Shown in pieces: positions 1-24,434 of a stretch of 36,977 bases of DNA; within the stretch, counting starts at the first letter, position 1; every line of letters begins with the position of its first letter. Made by a program: the position numbers and the translations under genes. The stretch comes from Thioalkalivibrio sp. (GTDB taxonomy: Bacteria; Pseudomonadota; Gammaproteobacteria; Ectothiorhodospirales; Ectothiorhodospiraceae). The notes beneath the pieces are model-generated. The model was not told where the DNA came from. It saw only the letters and a list, made by a program, of their open reading frames with translations, and made no database searches. The stretch is from contig SKJG01000172.1 of the NCBI GenBank assembly GCA_007116035.1, positions 1-36,977 of the forward strand. The letters run 5' to 3'.

Positions 1-153
1 CACCGCGCCCAGCAGGGCCACCATGTTCTGCAGCGAAGGCTCGATCACGATCGGCACGACCCAGATCGCGGCCGCCACCAGGATCAGCAGGCGCGCGAGC
101 GGTATCATCGCAAACACCAGGGAGCGCGCGGAGATCCTTTTCTGCTTTCGCAT
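1..153 (-). CDS. Membrane protein, 5'-partial frame (possible MscS-type channel), cut by window edge
   Basis: This frame runs from an ATG at 153 off the left edge of the window. About 51 residues are visible. They begin with a basic stretch (MRKQKR), followed by a strongly hydrophobic segment rich in Leu, Ile, Val and Ala, then a short polar turn and a second hydrophobic stretch. The pattern resembles the last helices before the pore of small-conductance mechanosensitive channels, but too little is visible to be sure. The ATG may not be the true start. A second open frame ending just upstream (up to 313) reads like this protein's N-terminus in another frame, joined at an A-rich tract (TTTT on the plus strand at 138-141). 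If so, this is the downstream half of a frameshifted gene and the last member of the operon that starts at 9233. Confidence 0.5.
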   Translation of the reverse strand, partial: MRKQKRISARSLVFAMIPLARLLILVAAAIWVVPIVIEPSLQNMVALLGAV

Positions 154-313
154 ATGCTTCCATCGGCTCTCGCGAGAGCCGGAACAGGTTCCTCAACGAG
201 CGCCATTTTTTTCTCGCCGCATTCAATTGGGTGTCTGACGGGAGTGTGAAATCCCCGATGGGCACGACCTCCCAAAGCGGGGCATTCGATCCTTCCTGCG
301 TCTCGGTGGTCAT
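142..313 (-). pseudogene. Upstream open frame, probable displaced N-terminus of the membrane protein at 1-153
   Basis: An ATG at 313, 19 bases after the stop of the preceding operon gene, opens a frame that stays open to the window edge. The first ~57 codons look protein-like: an acidic start, a short motif ending in GDFTLPSD, then a basic helix with AARKKW and SLRNLFRLSREP. After about position 140 this frame turns into low-complexity Gly/Arg/Asp-rich sequence, which is typical of a shadow. At that point the neighbouring frame becomes a convincing membrane protein. Removing one A from the A-tract (plus-strand TTTT, 138-141) would join the two smoothly. This could be a real mutation, a sequencing error or programmed slippage. 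No good ribosome-binding site is visible upstream of 313. Confidence 0.35.
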
Positions 314-332: not shown

Positions 333-1016
333 TCACCTGTCTTCCCCGGTATGTGTTAACGGATGCGTCCCATCGGAGGAAGGACTCCCGGATTCGAGTT
401 GCTCCCGGATACGCCGTATGTCACGCCAATACTCCAGTTTTGCGATGAGCACTTCAGCGAAAAGGTAGGCACCGAAGAGGAAGAAGCCACCCGCCACCAG
501 GCCGGCCACCGGCCATAGGAGTGCGGTGATCGCGGCGAGCCCGTAGGTCGTGGGCTCGACAATCTCCGCTCGCAGGTCCAGCCAGGTCAGGGCGGTCTCC
601 GCGGCAAGATCTGCCGCAACCAGGGACGAGATCGAAAAAGCGAGGGAGCTGAGCACGAACAGGATGGCGATCAATTCACCCAGAAGGCGCATGCAGAGGG
701 CCGTGCAGGTCATGACAGGATAGTCCTGCGCGACGAGGTTTCGCAGCATGCCGGCGCGACGCCAGAGCAACCCGAACCAGGAGACGATCGCCACCGCGAA
801 GAGGATCTGCAGCAGGATGACGGCGGCGAGCGGCCAGGGAAGTGGCGGCGTCTGCCATTCGACGATCCAATAGATCGCCGATACCAGGAGGCCCCCAACG
901 AGGATCATGACCGCGAGGACCCGAAGCCCGGCGGCGGCGAGCCGATGGATCGGAATGGTCTGATCGCGCGCCACAATACTGGTTTGGTCCATCGCGCCCT
1001 TTTTCGTAGCCGTCAT
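333..1016 (-). CDS. Four-helix integral membrane protein of unknown function
   Basis: A 227-residue protein that I do not recognise. It has four predicted transmembrane segments, at about residues 30-52, 62-86, 108-135 and 155-190. The soluble N-terminus is short, and the polar C-terminal tail is rich in Arg and Glu, then Ser, Pro and His. No catalytic or binding motif is visible. Its ATG overlaps the stop of the LigD polymerase gene by four bases (ATGA), so its translation is probably coupled to that gene. It is the penultimate gene of the RND-LigD operon. A second possible start, M9, lies eight codons in. Its place between a DNA-repair module and a likely channel gene suggests an envelope role, but that is only inference from context. 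Confidence 0.75.
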   Translation of the reverse strand: MTATKKGAMDQTSIVARDQTIPIHRLAAAGLRVLAVMILVGGLLVSAIYWIVEWQTPPLPWPLAAVILLQILFAVAIVSWFGLLWRRAGMLRNLVAQDYPVMTCTALCMRLLGELIAILFVLSSLAFSISSLVAADLAAETALTWLDLRAEIVEPTTYGLAAITALLWPVAGLVAGGFFLFGAYLFAEVLIAKLEYWRDIRRIREQLESGSPSSDGTHPLTHTGEDR

Positions 1017-1924
1017 AATCGGTCCAGTCGTTCGGGATCGATGGCAATGCCCCGTTGACCGATCGCCTTGAAAGGATCCTCCCTCTGGGCGAGTCGCCGG
1101 AAGATGTTGCCAAGGGTCCAGCGGTCGGGACGCAGACGCGGATTCAGTTCATTCCATTCAAGCGGGGCCGCGACCGGGGCGCCATTCAGCGTGCGTAACG
1201 AGTAGGGGGCGATCGTCGTCTGACCGTAGGCATTACGAAGGTAATCCAGGAATACGCGACCCTTCCGCGCCTTCTTGCGCTGTTCGACCGTCAGCCGGTC
1301 CGGATATCTGGCCGCCAGTTCCTCGGCCAGTCGCCGCGCGAAGTCCCTCGACTCGTCAAAGGTTGCCGATCGATCCAGGGGAACCACCACGTGCAGCCCG
1401 CGGGAACCGGTGGTCATCAGGAGACTGGGCATCTCCATGGTATCAAAGGCCCGGCGCAGGACTCCCGCCGCCCAGCGGACCGGGCTGAAGTCGTCGTTCG
1501 ACGGATCGAGATCGAAGACCAAGCGATCGGGGTATTCGGGACGATCGACGCGCGATAGGCCCGTGTGCAGCGCGATGGCCGCCTGATCGGCGATGTACAA
1601 CAGGGTCGGGAGGTCCTGAACCGCCAGATATTCGACCGTCTTCCCTTCGGCTGGCAGGTTCACCCGGGCGATCCATTCGGGGAAATGATCGGGCACGTTC
1701 TTCTGGAAAAAGCAGTCATCGATTCCGTCGGGGCAGCGCTGCAGGCTCACAGGGCGCCCATCCAGGTGGGGCAGCAGGGTTTCGGCGATCCGTCGATAGT
1801 AGTCGACTACCTGACCCTTGGTCACCGCATCCATCCCTCGGTGTGATGGGAACAGGGTCTTGTCCGGACGCTTCACCGTGATGGTGTGCGGACCAGGCCG
1901 GATCCTGCGTTCATCCGCGCCCAT
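1013..1924 (-). CDS. ligD: LigD polymerase domain (primase-polymerase) as a stand-alone protein
   Basis: A 303-residue archaeo-eukaryotic-primase-type polymerase, the domain that extends and fills DNA ends with (ribo)nucleotides during bacterial end joining. The metal-binding Asp pair is in FDLDP (D138, D140) and the third acidic residue is in VFLDYLRN (D227). The nucleotide-binding SRGLHVVVPL lies at 174-183 with H178. The frame could extend upstream to 2017, but that would run back into the ligase gene. The ATG at 1924 sits two bases after the ligase stop (TAG-CG-ATG), with GGGAGG about ten bases upstream. In most bacteria this domain is fused to the ligase and phosphoesterase in one LigD chain; here it is a separate protein. 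It is the third member of the split set, followed by a four-base overlap with the next gene. Confidence 0.93.
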   Translation of the reverse strand: MGADERRIRPGPHTITVKRPDKTLFPSHRGMDAVTKGQVVDYYRRIAETLLPHLDGRPVSLQRCPDGIDDCFFQKNVPDHFPEWIARVNLPAEGKTVEYLAVQDLPTLLYIADQAAIALHTGLSRVDRPEYPDRLVFDLDPSNDDFSPVRWAAGVLRRAFDTMEMPSLLMTTGSRGLHVVVPLDRSATFDESRDFARRLAEELAARYPDRLTVEQRKKARKGRVFLDYLRNAYGQTTIAPYSLRTLNGAPVAAPLEWNELNPRLRPDRWTLGNIFRRLAQREDPFKAIGQRGIAIDPERLDRL

Positions 1925-1926
1925 CG

Positions 1927-2928
1927 CTACGGGGCCTCCCGCACCACGTCTTTCGGTTTCTTGTCCCGTCTGAGGCCGAGAAACCGTGGATGGCGTAATC
2001 GGCCGTCTCGGGTCCACTCGGTGAAGCCGATTTCGCCCACCAGCGTGGGTTCGATGAAGTGTATGCCCTTTTCGGGAACCTCGTCAGCGAACGGCGATGG
2101 CTCCTGCCGCAGTTCGTCCATGCGCTCGCGCAGGTCCCGCAGCAAGCGATCGTCGAAACCCGTGCCCACCTTGCCCGAATAACGCAAGCGTTCGCCTTCG
2201 TAATAGCCGACCAACAGGGCCCCGAATCCCTTGCGGCTGCCCTTGGGGTCGGTGAAGCCGCCAATGACCATCTCCTGCCCCCGGCTGCACTTGAACTTGA
2301 GCCATTTGCGCGATCGACCGTGTTGATAACCTGCGTTCGCGTCCTTGGCGATCAGACCCTCCCAGCCCTTGTCGCAGGCCTCGCGCAGGAGCGCCTTCCC
2401 GTCACGGTTGCGATGCGGCAGAAAACGCAGCGGGCCCCCGAATTGCAGGGCCTTGCGTAGCAATTGCTTGCGCTGGCGCAACGGGATTGCGGTCACGGCG
2501 AAGCCGTCGAGGTTGAGGATATCGAACACATAGACGAATACCGGGATGTCGCTTTCACGCGCCTGTTCGGGATCACCGACCTGCATGCGTTGCTGCAATC
2601 GCGAGAATGATGTCAACGAGCCCTCGAAGGCAACTACCTCGCCATCGACAGCGAATTGTTCCGTCGTTTGCTGGCTCAGAGCGTCCATCAGTTCCGGATA
2701 CGTCCCGCTGGCATTCTTGTCGTTGCGCGTCAACAGACGTAAGCGGTCGCCATCCTTGATCGCAAGGATCCGCTCCCCGTCCAGCTTCCGTTCGTAAAGC
2801 CAGTCGGAGTCTGAAAACGGCTCGTGTGTGAGCGTTGCCTTCATCAGGTCGCCACCGACGGGCATGTCCGCCGGCTGGACCCGCTTTTTGAGATCCCCGT
2901 CGAGTTTCTTCAGCCAGGCCGGTTCCAT
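1927..2928 (-). CDS. ligD: LigD-type ATP-dependent DNA ligase as a stand-alone protein
   Basis: A 333-residue ATP-dependent DNA ligase of the LigD/LigC type, which seals nicks and breaks through a lysine-AMP intermediate. The adenylation motif is ERKLDGER with K48 as the nucleophile. FAVDGEVVAF (residues 92-101) matches motif III, EGLIAK (190-195) motif IV, and RKWLKFK (207-212) motif V. The C-terminal OB fold (from about 218) ends with RHPRFLGLRRDK, typical of motif VI. Nucleotidyltransferase plus OB domain account for the whole length, so nothing is missing from the ligase itself. Its ATG shares one base with the stop of the phosphoesterase gene (TGATG), so the two are probably translationally coupled. 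It may act with the neighbouring polymerase and phosphoesterase as a trans-assembled LigD. Confidence 0.95.
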   Translation of the reverse strand: MEPAWLKKLDGDLKKRVQPADMPVGGDLMKATLTHEPFSDSDWLYERKLDGERILAIKDGDRLRLLTRNDKNASGTYPELMDALSQQTTEQFAVDGEVVAFEGSLTSFSRLQQRMQVGDPEQARESDIPVFVYVFDILNLDGFAVTAIPLRQRKQLLRKALQFGGPLRFLPHRNRDGKALLREACDKGWEGLIAKDANAGYQHGRSRKWLKFKCSRGQEMVIGGFTDPKGSRKGFGALLVGYYEGERLRYSGKVGTGFDDRLLRDLRERMDELRQEPSPFADEVPEKGIHFIEPTLVGEIGFTEWTRDGRLRHPRFLGLRRDKKPKDVVREAP

Positions 2929-3512
2929 CAGGTTTCGTCCGCCGCGACCTCGTCGATCGTGCGGTCGCTCTGTACGGACTTTGGTTCTGTGTTCACCGGG
3001 TTTCGGCGTCGGTCGGCCTGATCGTCGTCCATCTTGATCAGCAGCCAGTTGCCGTCGCTGCCTCCGGTGCGATGCAGGGCGTATCCGCCCCGGATCTTTT
3101 CGCCGTCAAGCCATGCCAGCAGGTGGCCCTGTTCGAGGGCCTCCTCGGCGGATCGGGTCTCTCCGTCCTTTTCGGTGATGTTGGTCCAGGTGCCGCGATC
3201 CCAGATCAAGACGGTGCCGGCGCCATACTCGCCCTCGGGAATCCTGCCCTCGAAGTCCGCATAGTCCAAGGGATGGTCTTCCGTAGGGATCGCCATACGC
3301 CTGTCGCCGGGATCCGTTGACGGCCCCTTGGGCACGCTCCAGGATTTGAGGACTCCGTCGATCTCGAGCCTTAGATCGAAGTGGTGGGACGAGGCGTCGT
3401 GCTCCTGGATGACGAAGATGGGTTTTGTACCCGGCTCAGCGTCCGGTTCCTGGCCACGCGGCTCGTCGGTCTTGCGAAAGTCGCGTTTATCACGGTACTT
3501 GTTCAGGCTCAT
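2928..3512 (-). CDS. ligD: LigD 3'-phosphoesterase domain as a stand-alone protein
   Basis: A 194-residue protein matching the N-terminal phosphoesterase domain of LigD, which trims 3'-terminal ribonucleosides and removes 3'-phosphates to leave a clean 3'-OH. The residues known as essential in the Pseudomonas enzyme are all present: H38 (EHDA), H44, D46 and R48 (HFDLRLE), and H80 (EDHPLDY). The conserved SWSVPKGPS (57-65) and GEYGAGTVLIWDRG (94-107) blocks are also intact. The C-terminal ~35 residues are polar and probably disordered; in fused LigD proteins this is where the linker to the ligase begins. The open frame reaches far upstream, but that part is a shadow of the pump gene. The ATG at 3512 overlaps the RND stop by four bases (ATGA) and is the natural start. 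Confidence 0.93.
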   Translation of the reverse strand: MSLNKYRDKRDFRKTDEPRGQEPDAEPGTKPIFVIQEHDASSHHFDLRLEIDGVLKSWSVPKGPSTDPGDRRMAIPTEDHPLDYADFEGRIPEGEYGAGTVLIWDRGTWTNITEKDGETRSAEEALEQGHLLAWLDGEKIRGGYALHRTGGSDGNWLLIKMDDDQADRRRNPVNTEPKSVQSDRTIDEVAADET

Positions 3513-6500
3513 TGGCTGGTTTCCTCCTCGCGTTCCGGGGCCCTTGCGGTACTCGACCCGGTTCCGAATACGTGGAAGTACAGGCTCGGGATCAGGATCA
3601 GCGTGAGCACGGTGGCGACAACGACACCGCTGACCAGCGTCAGCCCGAGCGGCTTCAGGGCCGGTTCGAAGATCAAGGCACCGCTGCCGAATGCGACCGT
3701 CCCTGCAGTGAGCAGGATGGGACGCGTACGCAGCGCGCCGGCACTGATCAGGGCATCCTGGATGTCCATGCCCCTCTCGATGCGCCGCTGGGTGAAGTCC
3801 ACGAGCAGCACGGCGTTGCGCACCACGATCCCCGCCAGCGCGATGACGCCCAGCACGCCGAGCCCGGCAATGTCCAACCCCATCACCCAGTGGGCCGGGA
3901 TGACGCCGATGAAGACCAGCGGGATCGGCATCATGATCAATAGTGGAATGACATACGAGCCGAACCAGGCGGCGAGTAGCGTGTAGATCACCAACAGCAC
4001 GCCAATGCCGGCCAGGGCAAGGTCGCGGTAGACCTGCTGGGTCATCTGCCACTCGCCGCCCCAGAACAGCGTGGTCTCCAGTTCGCTTTCGGGCGGGCTG
4101 AACCAGCGGACGTCGGGTGGTTCGATCTCCTGGTCGCGCAAGGTTCCGCCGATGTCGCGCTGGACCGACACGGGTTGGCTTCGGTCGCGATTGATCTGGG
4201 CTGCGACATACACGACCGGAAGCTGATTCTTGCGGTGACGGTGGGCCGTGGTCTCGCCTTCCGTGAAATCCAGCACATCGCGCAGAGGCACCGGCTGGCC
4301 GGCCTCGTTGTGGATGTAGAGGCCAGCAAGATCCTCGACCCATTGTCGTTCGGTCTCGGGCAGCCGCACGACGATCGGGATCGGCTGACGTTCGTGGGGC
4401 AGGTCCAGGTCGGTTGCCGTACGGCCAGTGAGTGCCATCTGCACCGCAGCGGCTGCCCGTGCAGGGAGCACGCCCTGCGCCGTTGCGCGTGTCTGGTCAA
4501 CGGTCAGGCGGAGCTCGGGGGCTGGAGGCTTGGGGAACCGCTCGATCCCCACGGCGGCTTCGTGCTCCTCAAGGAGACGTGCGAGCATATCGGCCAGGGC
4601 CTGTTGTCGGTCGCGGTCCGCTCCATGGATTTCCGCCTGTACGTCGTTGTCGTTGGACGGCCCGGAGGGTATGTGGCGGGTCCAGGCGCGGCCGTCGAAG
4701 GGCGCCAGGAGTGCGGGCAGGCGGTCCATCAGTTCACGGCCGAGTTCGTAACTGAGCCGGACGCGCTGTTCCTTGTGCGGCAACTGCACATAGATGCTCG
4801 CTCGGTGCGAGGATGCGCTGGGCAGATCGGGCGGTCCAGGCCTCGCCATCAAGAGCGGGCCGTCGGTGCCGGCAAAGACTGTGTAGGCCTCGATTTCCGG
4901 GTACTCGCGCAACGCCCGGCCCACTGCTGCGCTTGCCTGCAGGGTGGTCTCCAGCGGGCTGCCGGGCGGCAACTCCATCTCGATCACGAAGACCTCGCGA
5001 TCGAGAAACGGAACCAGCGTCAACTGCACCGCACGGAACGCGACCATGGCAATGCTGGCGACCAGCAGGATCGCGAGTACGGCGTAGAAGATCCAGCGCA
5101 GCCAGGCGTGGTTGAAGAAGGGTTGCAGCAATAGCCGGTAGGCGTCCGCCAGTCGACCCGATGGCATCCGCTCCTCGCCCTGGCGGGCTGCCTGGTCATT
5201 TTCGGTGCCTTCGTCCTGTCCTTCGTCCCGGCGATCCCCGGCGCCATCGCCCGTGGGCGACCGCAGCAGGCGGAAAGCGACGAAGGGCGTGACGGTCAGG
5301 GCGATGACCAGCGAAAACAGGATGGCCAGCGACGCGCCGATGGGGATGGCGCGTGTGTACTGGCCCATTTCGCCCGAGATGAAGGCGGTGGGCAAGAGGG
5401 TGGCGACGATCAGAAAGACGGCCAGTATCGTGGGGTTGCCCACCTCGTCGACTGCGCGGATCACCAGTTCTCGGCTGCGTTCGCCGGCCTCGCGGAAATG
5501 GCGCCCGATGTTTTCCATGATGATCACGGTATCGTCTGCAACCAGGCCGATTGCCAGGATCATGGCGGCGATGGATACCGGATTGAGACTGAAGCCGATC
5601 CAGAGGTAGGCGAAGGGCACGATCGACAGGATGGCAGGGAGCAGCAGCGAGACCCCGACGGCTTCGCGCCAGCCAAGTCCGACCAGGATGATGATCACCA
5701 CCACCACCGTGGCAATGAAGAAATTCTCCAGCACGCTCATGACCGTCTCGGTGGCGGCCCGACCGGCATCGTAGGCAATGCTCACCTGGACGTGCGCGGG
5801 AATCATCTGCGGTTTCAGCGTCTCCAGGCGCTCCAGGGTGCGCGCCGTCACCGCGCTGATGTTCCGGTAGGGGATACTGGTGACCGCCAGGCTGACTGCC
5901 GCGACCTCGGTTGCCCCACCGCGTTGCCAATGCAGGCTGTAGGAGTCGTCGGGGGAGGGTCCGTCGATCACGTCGGCGACATCGGCAAGTTGAATGACAC
6001 CCGCCGGTCCGGCTCCCACCTGGATTCGCTCGACGTCCGCGACGGAGGCCGGCCAGGCGCCCACGCGGACCTGCCGGGTGATGTCACCACGCAGCGGTTC
6101 GGTCGGGAGACGCAGGCTTGCCGCTTCGATGGCCTCGTACATCTGTAGCAAACCGACATCGTACGCCGCCAGATCGCGCGGGCGGGGCAGTACCTGCAGT
6201 TCCCGCGGCTGGCCCCCATGCACGATAACGGCGCGCACGCCGTTGACCGCTTCGAGGCGCGCCGCCAGTTCCGAGGCCAGGCGCCGCAGTTCGTAGCCGC
6301 CCCAATCCGCGCTCGAGAGCGTCAGCATCAACCCCGTGAACAATTCGTCGCCCACGGTGCGGATCGATTCGGGCCCGACTCCCGGCGGCAGCCGGCTCCG
6401 ATGGCTTTCCATCAGTTCCTTCAATTCGCCGTAGGCCTGGGCGTCGCTGATCCCGGTCGAGAACTCGACCTCGATCAAGGCTGCATCGGCCGCAGCAACC

Positions 6501-6763
6501 GTCTTCACCTCGACGACGCGTTCGAGCTGACTGGCCCAACTGCCCACCGGCCGCGCCACCAGCTCATCGACGCGTTCGACACCGGCACCGGGGAACGGAA
6601 TCGTGATCAGCGCCGTAGGTATTTCGATGTCCGGCCGGTCCTCGCGCGGGGTCATGGTCAACCCATACGCCCCCATCACCAGGGCAGCCAGCACGATGAG
6701 CGGGACCAGCGGTGAGTCGATCAGTCGCTTTGCCAGATGACCGGCGAGGCCTGGCCTGTCCAT
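3509..6763 (-). CDS. RND family efflux pump, inner-membrane subunit
   Basis: A 1084-residue proton-driven RND exporter, the inner-membrane engine of a tripartite efflux system. It has the usual duplicated layout: an N-terminal helix, a periplasmic porter loop, a helix bundle with the acidic pair D410-D411 (GLVADDTVIIMEN), a second porter loop from about 570, and a C-terminal bundle. A charged Gly/Asp/Glu-rich linker lies at about 500-540. In the second bundle, where AcrB has the proton-relay Lys (K940), this protein has Arg: GIVVRNAVLLVDF, R982. The substrate cannot be read from sequence; the motifs fit the hydrophobe/amphiphile branch better than the heavy-metal branch. Its start shares one base with the adaptor stop, and its stop overlaps the LigD phosphoesterase start. 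Confidence 0.93.
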   Translation of the reverse strand: MDRPGLAGHLAKRLIDSPLVPLIVLAALVMGAYGLTMTPREDRPDIEIPTALITIPFPGAGVERVDELVARPVGSWASQLERVVEVKTVAAADAALIEVEFSTGISDAQAYGELKELMESHRSRLPPGVGPESIRTVGDELFTGLMLTLSSADWGGYELRRLASELAARLEAVNGVRAVIVHGGQPRELQVLPRPRDLAAYDVGLLQMYEAIEAASLRLPTEPLRGDITRQVRVGAWPASVADVERIQVGAGPAGVIQLADVADVIDGPSPDDSYSLHWQRGGATEVAAVSLAVTSIPYRNISAVTARTLERLETLKPQMIPAHVQVSIAYDAGRAATETVMSVLENFFIATVVVVIIILVGLGWREAVGVSLLLPAILSIVPFAYLWIGFSLNPVSIAAMILAIGLVADDTVIIMENIGRHFREAGERSRELVIRAVDEVGNPTILAVFLIVATLLPTAFISGEMGQYTRAIPIGASLAILFSLVIALTVTPFVAFRLLRSPTGDGAGDRRDEGQDEGTENDQAARQGEERMPSGRLADAYRLLLQPFFNHAWLRWIFYAVLAILLVASIAMVAFRAVQLTLVPFLDREVFVIEMELPPGSPLETTLQASAAVGRALREYPEIEAYTVFAGTDGPLLMARPGPPDLPSASSHRASIYVQLPHKEQRVRLSYELGRELMDRLPALLAPFDGRAWTRHIPSGPSNDNDVQAEIHGADRDRQQALADMLARLLEEHEAAVGIERFPKPPAPELRLTVDQTRATAQGVLPARAAAAVQMALTGRTATDLDLPHERQPIPIVVRLPETERQWVEDLAGLYIHNEAGQPVPLRDVLDFTEGETTAHRHRKNQLPVVYVAAQINRDRSQPVSVQRDIGGTLRDQEIEPPDVRWFSPPESELETTLFWGGEWQMTQQVYRDLALAGIGVLLVIYTLLAAWFGSYVIPLLIMMPIPLVFIGVIPAHWVMGLDIAGLGVLGVIALAGIVVRNAVLLVDFTQRRIERGMDIQDALISAGALRTRPILLTAGTVAFGSGALIFEPALKPLGLTLVSGVVVATVLTLILIPSLYFHVFGTGSSTARAPEREEETSQ

Positions 6764-7881
6764 CAGTCTTGCACCGTGGCATCCACGGTGACAGGCTGAT
6801 TGTCGGTCAGTTGATCCAGTGGATCCCCGACGACCACCCTTTCACCGCCGGAAAGGCCGCGTTCGACTTCCACCCAGTTGTGTGCGTCGGCGGGTCCGGC
6901 AGCCAGGACCAGCCAGCGCAGGCGCGCCCGCAGCTGACCATCGGCGTCGGGTTCGACCACGAAGACCCCCTCCATCTGACCGCGGCGGACCAGCGCGGCC
7001 TCGGGTATCGCGACACGGGGTCGCGACGGCTGCGTGGTGGGTACGGCGACCTCGGCCACCATGCCAGGCTTCAGTGCAGAGGGAGGATCCTCGATCGTCA
7101 GGCGCAGGCGCAGACCGACGCCGGCGCCCTCGAGGGCCGGGAGCACCGCCTGGACGCGCCCGTCGATGGTCTCTTCAATGCCGACGAATGCCATCGGCAG
7201 CGACTGCCCGATCTGGATCTGCATCGCGCTGGCTGCATCGATGCCGGCGTCCACCTCAAGGCGGCTGCGGTCTTCGAAGATCACAAGGGGAGGGCCCGGG
7301 GCGACGAACGAACCCGTCTCGGCCAGGATTTCGCTGATGACGCCAGTGAAGGGTGCGCGCAGCGTGGCGTAGTCCAGATTGATCTCAGCAGCGGCCAGCT
7401 CGGCTTCGGCCTGTTCGAGCAGGCCGCGTGCCTGTTCAGCCTTCACCGCGGCCTCTTCCATGCGGATGCGGGCCACGAGTTCCTGTTCGTACAGCCGTCG
7501 GAAGCGGCCTTCATTCTGCACGGCCTGTTCCCAGGCGGCCCGAGCCGCCTGGCGTTGCAGGCGTGCCGCGGTGCGTGCCGCCTCCAGATCACGGGCATCG
7601 ACGCGCAGAATGGGCTGATCGGCCTCGACGTGGTCACCGGCTTCGACCAGAACCGATTCCACTCTCCCCGCCTGCCGCGTGCCCATCTGCGCGCGTCGAT
7701 CGGGCTGTACCACGCCGGCGATACGCGCAACCGGCTGGTGCTCCCTGACCTCGGCCGACGCCACCTTTATGGCCAGGGTTGGGAGCGGTTCGGGGGCTTC
7801 GGGTGCCTCGGTGCATGCAAGAGACAGCAGGGCTATGAGCATCGACCCGATCGAAAGCCATCCTGTCCGTCGGCGAGTCAT
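6763..7881 (-). CDS. RND efflux periplasmic adaptor (membrane fusion protein), probable lipoprotein
   Basis: A 372-residue membrane fusion protein linking the RND pump to the outer-membrane factor. A basic N-terminus and hydrophobic helix end at a likely lipobox with Cys23 (SLAC), so it is probably lipid-anchored in the inner membrane. The residue at -3 is Ser rather than the usual Leu, which makes the lipobox slightly weak. A first lipoyl half-motif (GRVESVLVEAGDHVEADQPI, about 73-92) is followed by an Ala/Glu/Arg-rich alpha-hairpin (about 95-170). The second half-motif (LRAPFTGVISEI, about 174-185), a beta-barrel domain and a membrane-proximal domain follow. The ATG overlaps the upstream TolC-type gene by four bases, and its stop shares one base with the pump start. 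Confidence 0.92.
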   Translation of the reverse strand: MTRRRTGWLSIGSMLIALLSLACTEAPEAPEPLPTLAIKVASAEVREHQPVARIAGVVQPDRRAQMGTRQAGRVESVLVEAGDHVEADQPILRVDARDLEAARTAARLQRQAARAAWEQAVQNEGRFRRLYEQELVARIRMEEAAVKAEQARGLLEQAEAELAAAEINLDYATLRAPFTGVISEILAETGSFVAPGPPLVIFEDRSRLEVDAGIDAASAMQIQIGQSLPMAFVGIEETIDGRVQAVLPALEGAGVGLRLRLTIEDPPSALKPGMVAEVAVPTTQPSRPRVAIPEAALVRRGQMEGVFVVEPDADGQLRARLRWLVLAAGPADAHNWVEVERGLSGGERVVVGDPLDQLTDNQPVTVDATVQD

Positions 7882-9233
7882 GGCGAAATCACCGCAGGAT
7901 CGCCGGCCTCGATCGCCAGGCGGTAGCGTTGCGCGGCGACCAGGGTGTTGAAGCGGGCGTTGATCTCGCGGGTGAGTGCACCGAGTTCTTCCGCCTGGGC
8001 CTGCAGGAGAGAGGTGATGTCGTCCAGCCCCTCTGCGTAGCGAGCTTCGGTGAGTGCCAGTGCCGCTTCGGCATCCTCAACCCCGCTGGATGCGCGGTCC
8101 CAGCCCAGCAGTTCGGCCTCCCAGTCGGCGCGTGCCTCCTGTACCTCGCCGCGGGCAAGCAGCCGCAGGGCGCGCAGCTCGGCGTCGGCCTCCTGTGCAA
8201 CTGCGCGGGCCTCGTCGACCGCACCAGCCTGGCCAAGACCGGCGAAGGGGGTCCAGCGGAGATTCACGCCGACCATCCAGCCGCTCTCGGCAAGATCCAG
8301 CGGCCGATCCGTCTCCACGTGCTGGTAACGCAGCAACAGGTTGACGTCCGGAACGTACGCGGCACGGGAACGCCGTACACCGTAGCGGGCTGCGCTCACC
8401 GTCTCCTGCAGAGCCTGCAGATCATTGCGGCGCGCCAGGATCTCGGATTCGGCAGGTTCCGGGGGAAGCGCTCGGGGTGGCTCCGGCACCGCATCGGTGA
8501 GTTGCAGCGGGTCCTGGCCTTCGATACCGAGCACCTGCCGCAGCAGGGCGTGAGCGGCTACGACCTGACTCTTGGCCGTGGCGACCCGTGCCTCCATTTC
8601 CAGCACCCGGGATCGGGCACGCAGCACGTCGACCGGCGGGATCAGCCCTTCGTCGAAGCCCGCCTCGGCCTGACGCAAGGCGCGCTCGGCCGTTGCCAGG
8701 CCGCGCTGTTCGGCCTCGACCCGGCGCTCGGCCGTGCGCGCGCCAAAATAGCTCTCGATGACGGCGAGTGCAACTTCATCCCGGGTCCGCCGCAGCACCG
8801 ATCGGGCGGCATCGGTCTGAAGTTCGGCCTGTCGTCTGGCGTTCCAGGCGCCAACATTGATGAGCGGTTGAACGACCTGGACGGTCGCGATGCGGGCATC
8901 GACGGGTCCGAGATCCCGCCGGGTCAGGATCGGCGGGAAGCCGGGCTCGAGCACCGGGATATCATCGAGCAGCGAGGTGTCCAGACGCAGGTAACTGGCG
9001 TCGAAACTCAGTGTCGGCAAGGACCCCTGCAGCGTCTGCCGCCGTACTGCGTCGGCTCGGGCGATGCGTGCCCGGCGGAGCAGCAGCTCCGGGTTTTCCG
9101 CCTGCGCCCGACTCAGCGCGTCCTCCAGGGACCATCTCCCATGCGCAGGTTCGTGCGCAGCGGGGCTGGCCGACACCAACAGCATGGCCAGCCCAAGCGC
9201 AGCAGAGACCCTTTGCAAGACAGCTGTTTTCAC
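7878..9233 (-). CDS. TolC-family outer membrane efflux protein
   Basis: A 451-residue outer membrane factor, the exit duct of the tripartite pump. An N-terminal signal peptide (hydrophobic core about residues 8-22, Ala-rich cleavage region about 22-27) precedes two outer-membrane-efflux repeats. Each begins with the family's long amphipathic helices (WSLEDALSRAQAENPELL near 34, and RRNDLQALQETVSAAR near 268). The residues between them are Ala/Arg/Glu-rich coiled coil, as expected for a periplasmic tunnel. The start is a GTG preceded by GGGGAG a few bases upstream. This is the first gene of the operon; its stop overlaps the adaptor start by four bases (ATGA). The 205-base gap upstream separates it from the sulfur oxygenase reductase gene and should hold the operon promoter, though I cannot pick a convincing one. 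Confidence 0.92.
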   Translation of the reverse strand: MKTAVLQRVSAALGLAMLLVSASPAAHEPAHGRWSLEDALSRAQAENPELLLRRARIARADAVRRQTLQGSLPTLSFDASYLRLDTSLLDDIPVLEPGFPPILTRRDLGPVDARIATVQVVQPLINVGAWNARRQAELQTDAARSVLRRTRDEVALAVIESYFGARTAERRVEAEQRGLATAERALRQAEAGFDEGLIPPVDVLRARSRVLEMEARVATAKSQVVAAHALLRQVLGIEGQDPLQLTDAVPEPPRALPPEPAESEILARRNDLQALQETVSAARYGVRRSRAAYVPDVNLLLRYQHVETDRPLDLAESGWMVGVNLRWTPFAGLGQAGAVDEARAVAQEADAELRALRLLARGEVQEARADWEAELLGWDRASSGVEDAEAALALTEARYAEGLDDITSLLQAQAEELGALTREINARFNTLVAAQRYRLAIEAGDPAVISP

Positions 9234-9438: not shown

Positions 9439-10428
9439 TCAGTGGAAGAAGACCATGTCCTCCATCGCCGGAGCGAAGACCCGGTAGTAGGGTGGCAGCC
9501 GCGCAAGGTGAGCCAGCACGCCTTCGTCATGGACCTTCCGTAGTTCCGGGTTCACCCCGGTCAGGGCCAGGCCGAAGGTGAGCGTGTCTGGACTTTCCCA
9601 CTCCATGTGCACCAGGTACTCCTTCGGCCCCCCGATCGGAATCGGTGGCCCCGTATAATCCTTGCCGAATTCCCCGTAATTGGTTTGACGGGACTTCGGC
9701 GGGTTTGCGCCCAGGGTCTGCAGTGACTCCCAGAAGGCAGGGGGCGCCAGTTGAAAGGTGCTCAACGCCGCCTCGCCCTGCTTCTCGAGGATCATCCAGC
9801 CGATCATGCCGGGCGCACTTTCCTTCAGCATCTCCAGAGTGCGGATGGTACCCTCCAGAAAGGCCTGTTCCCTGCCTTCCATCACATGGTGCTCTCCGAG
9901 CGCCACCAGGCGCTTCATGGCAAGACGGACCTTGGGCACCGGTTTCTGCTGGGCGAATGCAGCGCCCATGACCTGCGGTACATCCGTCAGCCCCACGAGT
10001 CGTGGCATGTCCGCTTCGACGATCGTGTAGACCGGCTCGCAGGGGCCATCGACGACCATGTCGAGGCAGCCTGCGCAGAGTTCGAAGATCCGATCGAACT
10101 GCTCGTAGTGCATGCGCTCATGCGACTCTGCGTCTTCCCAGACCGTGTACTGCCATAAGTTGAGCGGATTGAGCCGCAGGTTGGTCGGTGACTCCATCAC
10201 GGCCTCCAGGCTATCCGCAGTCACCACCTGGGCGGCTCCGTAGCGTCCGCCCAGCGGGTGTGTTCCCGTTTGCAGAAACGCATGGAAGCCCAGGAATCCC
10301 GGCTCATTGGCCGTGGTCAGGCAGACCTTTGGCCCGATCTTCGACATTTTCTCAAAGCTGCTTGGGTCGTTTACAACGGCTGATTTGTTGATGGCCAGGG
10401 CTGCGCCTTTCTTGATTCCCTGAATCAT
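9439..10428 (-). CDS. sor: Sulfur oxygenase reductase
   Basis: A 329-residue cytoplasmic sulfur oxygenase reductase, which disproportionates elemental sulfur with oxygen into sulfite, thiosulfate and sulfide without cofactors beyond iron. The residues known from the Acidianus ambivalens enzyme are all in place: C36 (GPKVCLTTA, equivalent to C31, the persulfide site), C118 and C121 (CAGC, equivalent to C101/C104), and the iron ligands H103, H107 (HERMH) and E131 (CEPVYTIVEAD). An insertion of about 12 residues near 73-88, before the iron site, accounts for the extra length over the archaeal 308-residue form. An upstream in-frame start at 10545 is rejected because AAGGAGG lies about eight bases before the ATG at 10428. 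The HiPIP gene is 176 bases upstream on the same strand. Confidence 0.95.
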   Translation of the reverse strand: MIQGIKKGAALAINKSAVVNDPSSFEKMSKIGPKVCLTTANEPGFLGFHAFLQTGTHPLGGRYGAAQVVTADSLEAVMESPTNLRLNPLNLWQYTVWEDAESHERMHYEQFDRIFELCAGCLDMVVDGPCEPVYTIVEADMPRLVGLTDVPQVMGAAFAQQKPVPKVRLAMKRLVALGEHHVMEGREQAFLEGTIRTLEMLKESAPGMIGWMILEKQGEAALSTFQLAPPAFWESLQTLGANPPKSRQTNYGEFGKDYTGPPIPIGGPKEYLVHMEWESPDTLTFGLALTGVNPELRKVHDEGVLAHLARLPPYYRVFAPAMEDMVFFH

Positions 10429-10604
10429 GATGGGTGCCTCCTTTTGCAAGCTGTCAAGGGTCGTGCGGGTGGCATCGCCGGCAGCATGGCTGTGGGGACT
10501 GATGATCCACGTTGCGCGTCGGATCGCGGTCGTCGCCACAGACATCGCGGGCGGTGCGGCCCACCGTTAATAGAGAACCGTCCGTTCGGTTCGACCTGTT
10601 GCGA

Positions 10605-10931
10605 TCAGCTGCGCGGAACCCAGGCGTTACACCAGCCAGCCGCCGCGACATGCCTGCCTCCGAAGGCCTCACAGGGCCCCCAATCAGATGCATCGGGGTC
10701 GGTGTACAGGAGACAGTTGGCGCAGGTTTGTCCCTCCTCGTAGGCTTCGTGATCCACATCGGCGGCGTCGTGCCGATAATGAAGGGCCTGCGCCTCGGGA
10801 TCATCCTCGCTGACGCGGTCGTTCGCCGCTACCGGAGCGAAGAGCAGTGGTGCGGCAGGGATCGCAACGATGCCGGCGACACCCATGCGCAACAGTCGGC
10901 GGCGCGACGGATTGGGGTTTTGCTTTCTCAT
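10605..10931 (-). CDS. High-potential iron-sulfur protein (HiPIP), Tat-exported
   Basis: A 108-residue precursor of a small periplasmic [4Fe-4S] electron carrier. It starts with a twin-arginine signal (SRRRLLRMGVAG, residues 9-20), a hydrophobic core, and a likely cleavage after PVAA (about residue 37). The mature part holds four cysteines with HiPIP spacing: C70 and C73 (CANC), C87 (WGPC) and C101 (GWCNAW). The ATG at 10931 is chosen over the one at 10949 because GGAGAGGAG lies seven bases upstream. HiPIPs carry electrons to terminal oxidases or photosynthetic reaction centres in purple and sulfur-oxidising bacteria. Its neighbour, sulfur oxygenase reductase, needs no electron carrier itself, so HiPIP more likely serves oxidation of the products, which is inference. 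Confidence 0.92.
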   Translation of the reverse strand: MRKQNPNPSRRRLLRMGVAGIVAIPAAPLLFAPVAANDRVSEDDPEAQALHYRHDAADVDHEAYEEGQTCANCLLYTDPDASDWGPCEAFGGRHVAAAGWCNAWVPRS

Positions 10932-10967
10932 GACGGCTCTCCTCTCCATTGAACGAAGCCTCTTTTG

Positions 10968-13334: not shown

Positions 13335-14735
13335 TTATTTAGCGGCCTCGATATCGTAGCCTGCACTTTGCCAGCCGGTCATGCCGCCCAGCACATTGAA
13401 GACCGGTCCGCGTCCCTGCCTTTTCAGCAAACTGGCCATCACCGACGAGCGATAGCCGCTACCGCAGATGACCGCCAGCGGCCGGTTCGTCGGGATCTCG
13501 TCCAGACGTCGAGGCAGCTCGCCGCCGCTGATGTGGCGGGCGCCGGCGATGTGGCCTTCCGACCATTCTGCGGGTTGGCGCACGTCCAGGATCACCAGCT
13601 CCCGGTCATGCTCCGCAGCGTGACGTAGTTCATGAACGGTCCATTGAGGCAGGATGTCGATTTCGCGCCCACTGGTGCGCCAGGCCAGCATGCCGCCCGA
13701 CAGCCAGGCGGCCGGAAGGTCATAGCCGATGCGCAGGAGTTGCCAGTAGATATCCTCGAGATCGCCCGGCTGTTCCACCACCAGCAGGATCCGGGCATCC
13801 TCGGGCAGCACGGTTCCGGCCCAGGTACTGAAGGAGGTGCCGGCCGCAACGTTGAGAGCGCCGGGGATGTGCGCTGCAAAGGCCTCCGGCGACCGGCAGT
13901 CCACCACGAAGGTATCGTCCCGGCGGCTCATGCGCGCGAAGTCGTCGGGCTGCACGGCAGGCGGTTTGGGCAGGACGCCCAGTGGTTTCGGTCCCTCGGT
14001 GTTCTGGCTGCGCATACGGCGCCAGTAGGGAGGTACCGTGGGCAGATCCTTGAGTTCGAGACAACGCTCGACGAAGCCCTCGCTATCGTCGAGATCCACG
14101 AGCATCCGGTTCATGCGGCGTTCGTAACCGATCGTGGTCGAGAGCATGCTGCCGATATTGCCGCCGCAGAGCGAGCCGGCCACGTGCGTTGGATAGACAG
14201 GGACGTGGTCGGGAAGCTTCAGGATCTTTTCCTGCAGCGTGTGACAGAACTCACGAGCGCTTGACCGCGTTTCCTCATCGCCACCCAACAGGTCGGGTCG
14301 GGCAATGTCGTCGACCAGAAGCGCGCCGCCGGAGAGAAGCAATGCCGGGGCCCGGCCACGTGAGTGGTCGTAGACGAGCAGCGAGATGTGCTCCGGCGTG
14401 TGTCCCGGTGTATGCACGACCTCGAATTCGATCTCACCCATGCGCAGGCGTTCGCCGTCATCCATGTAATGGACGGGATATCCCAGCTGGGCCCGAGCAC
14501 CCGCCAGGAGCTGCACATCGGCTCGTGCCGGCAGCTCACAGATCCCGGAGAGGTAATCGTTGTGCTGATGGGAATCGGCGGCATAACGCAGCCGCATCCC
14601 GCGCGCCTGGGCCTCCTCGAGATAGTCATCCACATCTCGACGCACGTCGAGGACCAGAGCCTCGCCCGTTTCTTCGGAGCCAATGAAATACGACGCGTGT
14701 CCGAGGCTTTCAAGGTAGAACTGCTTGAAGATCAT
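13335..14735 (-). CDS. MBL-fold persulfide-dioxygenase-like protein with two C-terminal rhodanese domains
   Basis: A 466-residue protein with an N-terminal metallo-beta-lactamase domain (1-240) and two rhodanese domains (about 265-355 and 365-466). The family oxidises glutathione or protein persulfides to sulfite, and rhodanese domains move sulfane sulfur. The metal motif is SHQHNDY (H56, H58, D60, with Y61 where most have His). H112 in GHTPEH and H184 in PTHVAG are present. The Asp that ligates iron in human ETHE1 (in FTGD) is Gly137 here (SGGALL). The first rhodanese domain has no Cys in its active loop, while the second has C424 in CGSGYRS. So only one rhodanese site looks active, and the iron site is non-canonical. 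GGGAGAG lies five to six bases before the ATG. A candidate promoter with a palindrome is upstream. Confidence 0.88.
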   Translation of the reverse strand: MIFKQFYLESLGHASYFIGSEETGEALVLDVRRDVDDYLEEAQARGMRLRYAADSHQHNDYLSGICELPARADVQLLAGARAQLGYPVHYMDDGERLRMGEIEFEVVHTPGHTPEHISLLVYDHSRGRAPALLLSGGALLVDDIARPDLLGGDEETRSSAREFCHTLQEKILKLPDHVPVYPTHVAGSLCGGNIGSMLSTTIGYERRMNRMLVDLDDSEGFVERCLELKDLPTVPPYWRRMRSQNTEGPKPLGVLPKPPAVQPDDFARMSRRDDTFVVDCRSPEAFAAHIPGALNVAAGTSFSTWAGTVLPEDARILLVVEQPGDLEDIYWQLLRIGYDLPAAWLSGGMLAWRTSGREIDILPQWTVHELRHAAEHDRELVILDVRQPAEWSEGHIAGARHISGGELPRRLDEIPTNRPLAVICGSGYRSSVMASLLKRQGRGPVFNVLGGMTGWQSAGYDIEAAK

Positions 14736-24031: not shown

Positions 24032-24116
24032 TAGGAAACACCCAGGGCGCCTGTGCGAAGGGCAATTGGATCGCGGACACCCATAATGGACGGTAACGAA
24101 GAAGAGGATAAGACTC

Positions 24117-24434
24117 ATGGAAAACGGAGTGACTGTGATCGTCTGGCTGGTCTGGCTAGCGATTTTTCTGCTTGCCATACCGCTGGTTTTGCGAATCCGC
24201 CATCCTGAACAGCGCGCATTCGCCGCCTATCTGATCTTCGTCAGCATCTTTACCGTCGTGGCCGGGGTGCTGTTCTGGCTGTTGTCCTGGCTGGCGCTCG
24301 CCTTGGGGCTTGCGCCGATGCTGGAACGGGTGATTCCCGCGATCGCATTTCTGCTGCTGATCTTTGTCCCCGCGTTTGCACTCGCGTTCTGGCAGGCACG
24401 CAAGCCGCGGTGGAGGAAAGCGCCACCCCCTTGA
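24117..24434 (+). CDS. Small three-helix membrane protein of unknown function
   Basis: A 105-residue membrane protein that I do not recognise. Three hydrophobic helices lie at about residues 6-25, 36-62 and 70-92, followed by a short basic tail ([10 protein letters not shown]). The ATG at 24117 has AAGAGGA about nine bases upstream. It stands between the fusion enzyme and the branching enzyme in a cluster otherwise made of soluble enzymes, and could be an unrelated passenger. Codon use is like its neighbours. No motif suggests a transport or enzymatic role. Confidence 0.75.

What the first reader, a model, noticed from the sequence alone, without database searches (positions are those of the whole stretch)
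1013..9233. LigD split into three genes inside a tripartite RND efflux operon
Phosphoesterase, ligase and polymerase, normally one LigD chain, are three separate complete proteins here. All have intact catalytic residues (H38/H44/D46/R48/H80; K48; D138/D140/D227). They are translationally coupled to a TolC-adaptor-RND set through overlaps of 1-4 bases or a 2-base gap at every junction. Split LigD modules are known in archaea and some bacteria, but a seamless join to a multidrug-type pump is not something I know of. It might link repair of broken DNA with export of a genotoxic agent, or simply share a promoter.
Basis: partly seen in the sequence, partly recalled or inferred. Interest (0 to 1): 0.75.

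Follow-up and report, generated by a model that had tools for sequence, protein, structure and literature searches.

The report
Ku-less split LigD behind a pump
Three separate DNA-repair genes that together equal the repair enzyme LigD sit right behind an ordinary efflux pump in a few sulfur bacteria; the tie to the pump looks like chance, but the repair set has no sign of its usual partner Ku, which is the more interesting point.

Summary
On the minus strand TolC, adaptor, RND, phosphoesterase (PE), ligase (LIG) and polymerase (POL) follow with 4-, 1-, 4- and 1-base overlaps and a 2-base gap, catalytic residues intact. A seventh gene, M227 (all-helical, probably membrane), overlaps POL by 4 bases. 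The pump link is lineage-specific: the intact order is in 2 of 30 genus genomes (Thioalkalivibrio); a third keeps PE but has lost LIG and most of POL. In three others the next same-strand gene after RND, 0.8 kb on, is an SLC13-like gene and the repair genes are absent from that spot. None of 75 loci checked outside the genus has an adjoining pump gene. Between the two intact genomes cassette dS is 0.36 against 0.75 for the pump, so the two have different histories. PE and POL are nearest, among solved structures, to the archaeal separate-gene type. No Ku above cut-off in 30 of 30 genus genomes; in a PE tree 3 of 16 tested genomes of the window's clade have Ku, 21 of 25 tested rows on the other side. 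Best reading: an acquired, probably Ku-independent gap-repair cassette that borrows the pump's transcript. Transcription and activity are untested.

The parts
7878..9233 (-). TolC-family outer membrane efflux protein, 451 aa (GTG start)
   Evidence: PF02321 2e-47; orthologue 75% in G004, 93% in G025
6763..7881 (-). RND periplasmic adaptor (membrane fusion protein), 372 aa; ATGA overlap with TolC
   Evidence: TIGR01730 200.6 bits, over its cut-off of 94.9; junction
3509..6763 (-). RND permease, 1084 aa; TGATG overlap with the adaptor
   Evidence: PF00873 3e-137; orthologues at 74-97% in 5 other genus members plus a fragment in G027
3512..3550 (-). 13-residue RND C-terminal extension (residues 1072-1084), absent from the four pump-only RNDs compared; it contains a Shine-Dalgarno-like AGGAGG (3523-3528) in front of PE
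   Evidence: RND 3' ends of 7 genomes compared; upstream sequence
2928..3512 (-). LigD-type 3'-phosphoesterase (PE), 194 aa; ATGA overlap with RND
   Evidence: PF13298 1.3e-42, TIGR02777 over cut-off; best PDB match 5dmp
1927..2928 (-). LigD-type ATP-dependent ligase (LIG), 333 aa; TGATG overlap with PE
   Evidence: TIGR02779 279.8 bits, over its cut-off of 227.75; K48 in KLDGE
1013..1924 (-). LigD-type primase-polymerase (POL), 303 aa; 2-base gap after LIG
   Evidence: PF21686 2.7e-90, TIGR02778 over cut-off; best PDB match 5dmu, 295 bits
333..1016 (-). M227: 227-aa hydrophobic (probably membrane) protein of unknown function, ATGA overlap with POL
   Evidence: no Pfam/NCBIfam match; homologues in 9 of 30 genus genomes, the query genome included; low-confidence all-helical model, pLDDT 57
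2..313 (-). start of a further same-strand ORF, 20-base gap after M227, cut by the contig end
   Evidence: no Pfam match

Best explanation
An ordinary Thioalkalivibrio tripartite RND pump operon, whose next same-strand gene in relatives is an SLC13-type transporter gene about 0.8 kb on, received a block made of a separate-gene LigD cassette (PE-LIG-POL) and a small membrane-protein gene (M227) in place of that spacer. The block starts within the last residues of RND, whose new tail carries a ribosome-binding site for PE, so the cassette is probably transcribed with the pump and translated by re-initiation (inferred). The cassette is of an archaeal-like, horizontally spread type and has no detectable Ku partner in this genome. 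Most likely it works as a Ku-independent end-cleaning and short-gap repair set: PE removes 3' phosphates or ribonucleotides, POL fills the gap, LIG seals. Shown by comparison: gene content, the occupied and empty sites, the separate history, the lack of a detected Ku. Inferred: direction of the change (gain, not loss), shared transcript, enzyme activities, Ku-independence. No functional link to the pump's substrate is proposed.
For: Empty site: in G019, G026 and G027 RND is followed, about 0.8 kb on, by an SLC13-like gene 86-88% identical to the one after M227 in G025; nucleotide similarity with G025 stops 50-70 bases before its RND stop and resumes 12-20 bases before its SLC13 start. Own history: G000-G004 dS is 0.36 for PE+LIG+POL against 0.75 for the pump and 0.75 and 1.08 for two RND paralogues; 0 of 2000 codon permutations reach the pS difference. 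Constraint: dN/dS 0.14-0.22 for the cassette between G000 and G004. Spread: three-gene relatives in Pseudidiomarina and in Trueperaceae and Bacteroidetes MAGs; in the POL tree G026 groups with Pseudidiomarina (100/100), G027 in another group, window and G004 nearest to G423 of another class. Type: PE best to Methanocella 5DMP, POL best to 5DMU at 295 bits against 136 for M. tuberculosis. Ku: 0 of 30 genus genomes over cut-off; 3 of 16 tested genomes of the window's PE clade have Ku against 21 of 25 tested rows on the other side. Ku and LigD-type ligase both undetected: G025, G186, G262, G358.
Against: No expression data. Three genomes of the PE clade do have Ku (G198, G209, G341); in G198 and G209 Ku lies near a second, non-clade LigD, but G341 has no second LigD_N match. 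Collapsed to genera the Ku contrast is weak when every tested row is counted (3 of 8 against 16 of 19, p 0.03). Being split does not by itself go with lack of Ku: five rows on the other side with short or broken frames have Ku. The Methanocella system is described as having the same core components as the mycobacterial one (PMC4797286, passages), so the enzyme type is not evidence against end joining. Polarity is inferred: loss of the block and its replacement by a 107-aa opposite-strand gene, which stands there in all three empty sites, is not formally excluded. G019 and G024-G027 are fragmented assemblies, so some losses could be assembly faults.
Confidence: 0.6

Rival explanations
1. Functional coupling: the pump exports a genotoxic compound and the repair set mends the damage it causes, so the seven genes are one resistance operon.
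For: All junctions are tight and the arrangement is intact in two genomes whose RNDs are 84% identical.
Against: Pump without cassette at the same spot in G019, G024, G026 and G027, and PE and POL on other contigs in G026 and G027; LIG lost and POL gutted behind an intact pump in G025; 0 of 75 loci outside the genus with an adjoining pump gene; the cassette's divergence between G000 and G004 is half the pump's.
Confidence: 0.1
2. Ordinary end joining: the split LigD works with a Ku that is too divergent, or missing from the assembly, or replaced by another end-binding protein.
For: All three enzymes are of the end-joining families, and three genomes of the PE clade do carry Ku.
Against: Assembly 99.67% complete; no Ku above cut-off in 30 of 30 genus genomes, the two sub-threshold hits scoring 20-21 bits, the own one inside an ORF that reads like a MinD/ParA ATPase; the same search finds Ku in 28 of 45 other genomes. 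No gene common to the split-cassette neighbourhoods was seen by eye, save within one genus.
Confidence: 0.2
3. Passenger: the cassette is a transient mobile module with no steady function in this genus, kept only until it decays.
For: Present in 5 of 30 genomes; LIG is gone in G025 and broken in G027 (adenylation part missing plus two stops).
Against: dN/dS 0.14-0.22 in the two intact copies, like the pump's 0.14-0.21; PE open in 4 of 5 genomes, the fifth cut by a contig end.
Confidence: 0.2

Closest known systems
Archaeal end-joining operon of Methanocella paludicola (separate PE, Pol, Lig; PDB 5DMP, 5DMU; PMC4797286, passages seen)
   Same: Separate PE, POL and LIG genes in one operon; best solved relatives of window PE and POL
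   Different: No Ku found in this genome; sits behind an RND pump with M227 at the end
Bacterial LigD with Ku (PMC8656161, passages seen)
   Same: Same three enzymatic domains and catalytic residues
   Different: Three chains instead of one; no Ku found; PE falls outside the side of the tree that holds the fused LigDs (98/96)
'LigD only' and 'nonconventional' classes of Sharda et al. 2020 (PMC7719229, passages seen): 619 genomes with LigD and no Ku among 5,973; split domains are counted as nonconventional when Ku is present
   Same: Ku-less and domain-split genomes are already counted there
   Different: The passages I saw do not describe a mostly Ku-less split clade or a pump linkage
Mycobacterial LigC/Prim-PolC gap repair (PMC5663958, passages seen) and the 5'-dRP lyase and possible excision-repair role of B. 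subtilis LigD (PMC4770248, passages seen)
   Same: Model for short-gap filling and sealing by LigD-like enzymes
   Different: LigC and Prim-PolC were not compared with the window proteins here; the window set adds PE
Tripartite RND efflux systems (TolC-adaptor-RND)
   Same: All three families present side by side
   Different: RND carries a 13-residue tail that overlaps the ribosome-binding site of PE; best NCBIfam match for RND is far below its cut-off (358 of 1250 bits)

Membership tests
Bacterial NHEJ (Ku + LigD) | Ku gene in the genome | tested here: not met
   PF02735 best 20.3 bits against a cut-off of 25, inside an ORF that reads like a MinD/ParA ATPase; 0 of 30 genus genomes over cut-off
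Bacterial NHEJ (Ku + LigD) | PE, LIG and POL domains encoded | tested here: met
   TIGR02777, TIGR02779 and TIGR02778 all over cut-off; catalytic residues
Conventional LigD | three domains in one chain | tested here: not met
   three ORFs with stop codons between them
Split (archaeal-like) end-joining cassette | separate adjacent PE, LIG, POL genes on one strand | tested here: met
   same order in L069, L071, L104-L106, L112, L155
Split (archaeal-like) end-joining cassette | PE groups with other split PEs, apart from fused LigDs | tested here: met
   23 rows against 26, support 98/96, bootstrap not fully settled; 5 split or lone PEs lie on the other side; no archaeal row was in the tree
Split (archaeal-like) end-joining cassette | joins broken ends in vitro | not testable with these tools
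   needs protein assays
Tripartite RND efflux pump | outer-membrane channel, adaptor and RND permease genes together | tested here: met
   PF02321, TIGR01730, PF00873
Tripartite RND efflux pump | proton-relay residues of AcrB-type permeases (Asp-Asp and Lys; recalled) | tested here: inconclusive
   GLVADD is present; the place recalled for the Lys reads GIVVRNA, Arg instead of Lys (sequence; not aligned residue by residue)
Tripartite RND efflux pump | substrate | not testable with these tools
   no family assignment above cut-off for the permease beyond PF00873

The most novel reading that the evidence does not exclude
There is a horizontally spread, separate-gene LigD clade in bacteria that mostly works without Ku, and in which even the ligase is optional (PE-POL pairs, or PE alone, in genomes with no detected Ku or LigD-type ligase). 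It would be a gap-cleaning and gap-filling repair system rather than an end-joining system; in Thioalkalivibrio one copy has come under the expression control of an efflux pump.
Probability: 0.35. Interest if true: 0.6.

Novelty: new variant of a known kind. Interest (0 to 1): 0.35.

Why it matters
LigD and Ku are usually treated as a pair. A clade of split LigD cassettes that moves between distant bacteria and is mostly found without Ku, sometimes without its own ligase, allows a direct test of whether LigD-type PE and POL act outside end joining. The pump link itself matters less: it is a reminder that a seamless operon need not be a functional unit, since here an empty site, a different age and a decayed copy can all be seen.

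Tried and rejected
Pump-repair coupling as a conserved theme: I looked for pump genes next to LigD_N or LIG at 75 distinct sites outside the genus: 30 class loci (30 of the 49 or so matches), 16 longer class loci of which 10 repeat sites of the 30, 30 phylum loci (of 114 genomes with a match) and 5 longer ones, 4 named loci. None adjoins. One, the Bacteroidetes MAG L068, has an RND gene about 3.4 kb upstream with an opposite-strand ORF between; with 13 RND matches in G000 (5-16 per genus genome) such a neighbour is expected now and then. 50 of the 75 sites were seen with at most about 1.5 kb of flank, and a very divergent RND could be missed by tblastn at 1e-3.

Internal promoter or terminator between RND and PE: promoter-like and terminator-like sites are not above shuffled expectation (1 against 1.4, 5 against 5.2), and the minus-strand ones lie inside RND; such scans cannot exclude a promoter.

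Foreign composition: GC of PE, LIG, POL 0.61-0.63 against 0.66-0.68 for the pump, GC3 similar (0.74-0.78 against 0.75-0.81); too weak to use.

Mobile carrier: no PE match in 50,697 phage records; plasmid records hold LIG relatives only below 60% identity, the top-ranked at 43%.

M227 as a repair partner: in G029, G006 and G016 its homologue lies beside what reads by eye like a chemotaxis receptor, not beside LigD. Its structure model came at last with low confidence (mean pLDDT 57, pTM 0.31, long helices) and was not used for a fold search.

A Ku contrast by 'split or fused' alone: my first count (16 of 16 fused rows against 3 of 16, p 3e-6; by genus 14 of 14 against 3 of 8, p 0.002) left out the five short-frame rows with Ku and the four lone-PE rows without Ku. 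With every tested row counted it is 21 of 25 against 3 of 16 (p 6e-5), by genus 16 of 19 against 3 of 8 (p 0.03).

Literature: one paper holds RND, efflux, LigD, operon and DNA ligase together and by title and abstract is about phenazines (listing); none holds Thioalkalivibrio, RND and DNA ligase; Thioalkalivibrio, genome, efflux and DNA repair gave five listings that look unrelated.
Full report
WHERE IT IS. The window is the whole of contig C112 of an unnamed assembly (G000: 3.03 Mb, 186 contigs, 99.67% complete). Two loci found in the named collection are from a MAG labelled Thioalkalivibrio sp. SH-MAG144 (L072, L073) and match in length contigs C82 and C142 of genus member G027, so I call the genus Thioalkalivibrio.

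OBSERVATION. The operon does not end at POL: a 227-aa hydrophobic protein (M227) overlaps POL by an ATGA, and another ORF starts 20 bases later and runs off the contig. M227 has no Pfam or NCBIfam match and a low-confidence, all-helical model. Only one LigD_N domain is in the genome.

DISTRIBUTION IN THE GENUS. LigD_N is in 5 of 30 genus genomes held (G000, G004, G025, G026, G027) and in the same 5 of 47 genomes of the order. The pump's RND has orthologues at 74% or more in six genomes (G000, G025 97%, G004 84%, G024 76%, G019 75%, G026 74% with one TGA) and an 83% fragment in G027; the next matches are at about 33%. G004 has the full order TolC-adaptor-RND-PE-LIG-POL-M227 with the same junction spacings. 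G025 has pump, PE and M227, but LIG is absent and POL lacks residues 70-266 and has a one-base-type gap that shifts the frame. G019, G026 and G027 have no LigD genes behind RND; in G024 only 297 bases after RND are held and hold no PE. So the intact order is in 2 of 30 genomes.

EMPTY SITE. In G019, G026 and G027 the next same-strand gene after RND is an SLC13-like gene (CitMHS/Na-sulphate symporter families in G025) about 0.8 kb on; between them stands a 107-aa opposite-strand ORF, 89-93% alike in the three. The SLC13-like gene that follows M227 in G025 is 86-88% identical to theirs. Nucleotide similarity between G025 and these three stops 50-70 bases before the RND stop of G025 and resumes 12-20 bases before its SLC13 start. 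So the block takes the place of the 0.8-kb spacer; the 107-aa ORF is not found in the G025 or G004 stretches, while the window has a 70% relative at 24114-24428. That the block was gained and not lost is inferred from the cassette's different history and its distant relatives. In the linked genomes RND has a 13-residue extension that the pump-only RNDs lack; the bases coding for it carry a Shine-Dalgarno-like AGGAGG in front of PE. The window itself does not reach an SLC13 gene on this side (contig end), and G004 has other genes after M227.

AGE AND CONSTRAINT. Between G000 and G004 dS is 0.87, 0.71 and 0.72 for TolC, adaptor and RND, but 0.37, 0.36 and 0.37 for PE, LIG and POL and 0.46 for M227. 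Two unlinked RND paralogues give 0.75 and 1.08. Pooled, pump against cassette pS is 0.474 against 0.288; 0 of 2000 codon permutations reach this difference. Lower values may begin in the last 200 or so codons of RND, though single windows elsewhere in the pump are as low. The simplest reading is exchange of the block between these lineages after they parted, so the two genomes are not independent witnesses of a conserved linkage. dN/dS is 0.14 (PE), 0.22 (LIG), 0.18 (POL) and 0.14-0.21 for the pump genes: both are under purifying selection. Between G000 and G025 PE (dS 0.23) is not younger than RND (0.13) or a paralogue (0.24), so the effect is seen in the G004 pair.

OTHER COPIES. G027 PE is 57% and POL 45% identical to the window's; G026 PE (cut by a contig end) 72%, POL 44%. 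In the POL tree G026 groups with Pseudidiomarina salinarum (100/100), G027 with seven other rows (97/98), and window plus G004 with G423, from another class of the phylum (90/78): three origins in one genus. The PE tree agrees for G027 but puts G026's PE next to the window group (95/89), so G026 is a mosaic or its two contigs are two loci. In G027 LIG lacks most of its adenylation part, including the catalytic lysine, and has two stops; the two contig ends overlap exactly by 127 bases.

OUTSIDE THE GENUS. Relatives with PE, LIG and POL in separate frames (LIG 48-56% identical) are in Pseudidiomarina salinarum and in MAGs of Trueperaceae and Bacteroidetes; a Salinisphaera MAG has LIG with a PE piece before it. 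In an even draw of 370 genomes of the class 42 have LigD_N; in 396 of the phylum 114 have it. Pump genes adjoin none of the 75 distinct sites that I looked at (limits in Tried and rejected).

KU. None of 30 genus genomes has Ku above cut-off; G000 and G020 have sub-threshold hits of 20-21 bits. Of 45 other genomes with LigD_N tested, 28 have Ku. Of 23 class genomes with an open frame of 800 aa or more around LigD_N, 22 have Ku, G136 being the exception. In a PE tree of 49 rows (a choice of loci, not a random sample; the 30 phylum loci with fused frames were left out) a 23-row clade that holds the window and the close split cassettes is parted from 26 rows with support 98/96, the bootstrap not fully settled. 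Of the 23 rows 16 are from genomes tested for Ku: 3 have it (G198, G209, G341), 13 do not. On the other side 25 of 26 rows are tested: 16 fused and 5 short-frame rows have Ku, 4 lone PEs (G389, G321, G128, G193) do not; one split locus there (G598) is untested. Fisher p 6e-5 by genome and 0.03 collapsed to genera. In G198 and G209 Ku lies near a second LigD that is not of this clade.

LIGASE OPTIONAL. In G262, G358, G186, G283, G209 (second locus), G423 and G537 PE and POL stand together without LIG between them. No LigD-type ligase was found in G025, G026, G186, G262, G358, G485 and G537; G283 has one elsewhere. G026's case is open: its cassette is cut by contig ends, and the first bases of its contig C110 still read as the C-terminal end of LIG (read by eye). 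G025, G186, G262 and G358 thus have PE (with POL in the last three) but neither Ku nor a LigD-type ligase detected. G485 and G537 were not tested for Ku.

MECHANISM. Shown: gene content, junctions, residues, occupied and empty sites, own history, constraint, lack of detected Ku. Inferred: gain, co-transcription with the pump, translational coupling, Ku-independent repair. The model follows from the families: PE turns 3'-phosphate ends into 3'-OH and is also a ribonuclease (PMC8656161, passages), the polymerase fills short gaps and LIG seals. LigC and Prim-PolC of mycobacteria fill short gaps with ribonucleotides and associate with excision-repair enzymes (PMC5663958, passages), and B. subtilis LigD works in a reconstituted base excision repair reaction (PMC4770248, passages). 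A pathway of this sort would explain why Ku and even LIG can be missing, since the cell's replicative ligase could seal the nicks (inference).

KNOWN OR NEW. Separate, co-operonic PE, Pol and Lig are known 'in many organisms' (PMC4797286, passages; also PMC5663958, and PMC5124664, passages), and 619 of 5,973 bacterial genomes were counted as having LigD and no Ku (PMC7719229, passages). What I did not find in print is the pump linkage or a split, mostly Ku-less clade. The pump linkage is in my view a lineage-level accident; the split, mostly Ku-less clade deserves the second look.

Noticed in passing
window 9439-10545 (-): Sulfur oxygenase reductase gene (PF07682, 418 bits) directly upstream of the pump operon, with a HiPIP gene (10605-10949) next to it; both are also next to the pump in G025.
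   Followed up: partly
window 19915-24000 (+): A 1361-aa ORF that reads like three joined enzymes (a phosphoglucomutase-like HAD part, a trehalose-phosphatase-like HAD part, a GH65-like part), at the head of what looks like an alpha-glucan/trehalose gene cluster up to 36 kb. Names are recalled from the sequence; no search was run.
   Followed up: no
window 13335-14735 (-): ORF with a rhodanese part in its C-terminal half (PF00581); the N-terminal half looks like a metallo-beta-lactamase fold to the eye, but no such Pfam family was reported.
   Followed up: no
window 24114-24428 (+): A 70% relative of the 107-aa membrane-like ORF that stands between RND and the SLC13-like gene in the pump-only genomes G019, G026, G027; in the window it lies far from the pump.
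   Followed up: partly
window 3509-6763 (-): RND permease keeps the Asp-Asp of AcrB-type pumps, but where a Lys is recalled it reads Arg (GIVVRNA). Recalled motifs, not aligned.
   Followed up: no
L107, L108, L110, L111, L114, L156, L158: PE and POL genes side by side without a LIG between them in other proteobacteria; some of these genomes (G186, G262, G358) have no detected Ku or LigD-type ligase.
   Followed up: partly
L055-L059: M227 homologues (49-53%, one partial at 75%) elsewhere in the genus; in L056-L058 next to a gene that reads like a chemotaxis receptor: a small membrane-protein family of unknown function.
   Followed up: partly
L068 911-4054: Bacteroidetes MAG: an RND permease-like gene about 3.4 kb upstream of a PE-LIG-POL cassette, with an opposite-strand ORF between.
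   Followed up: partly
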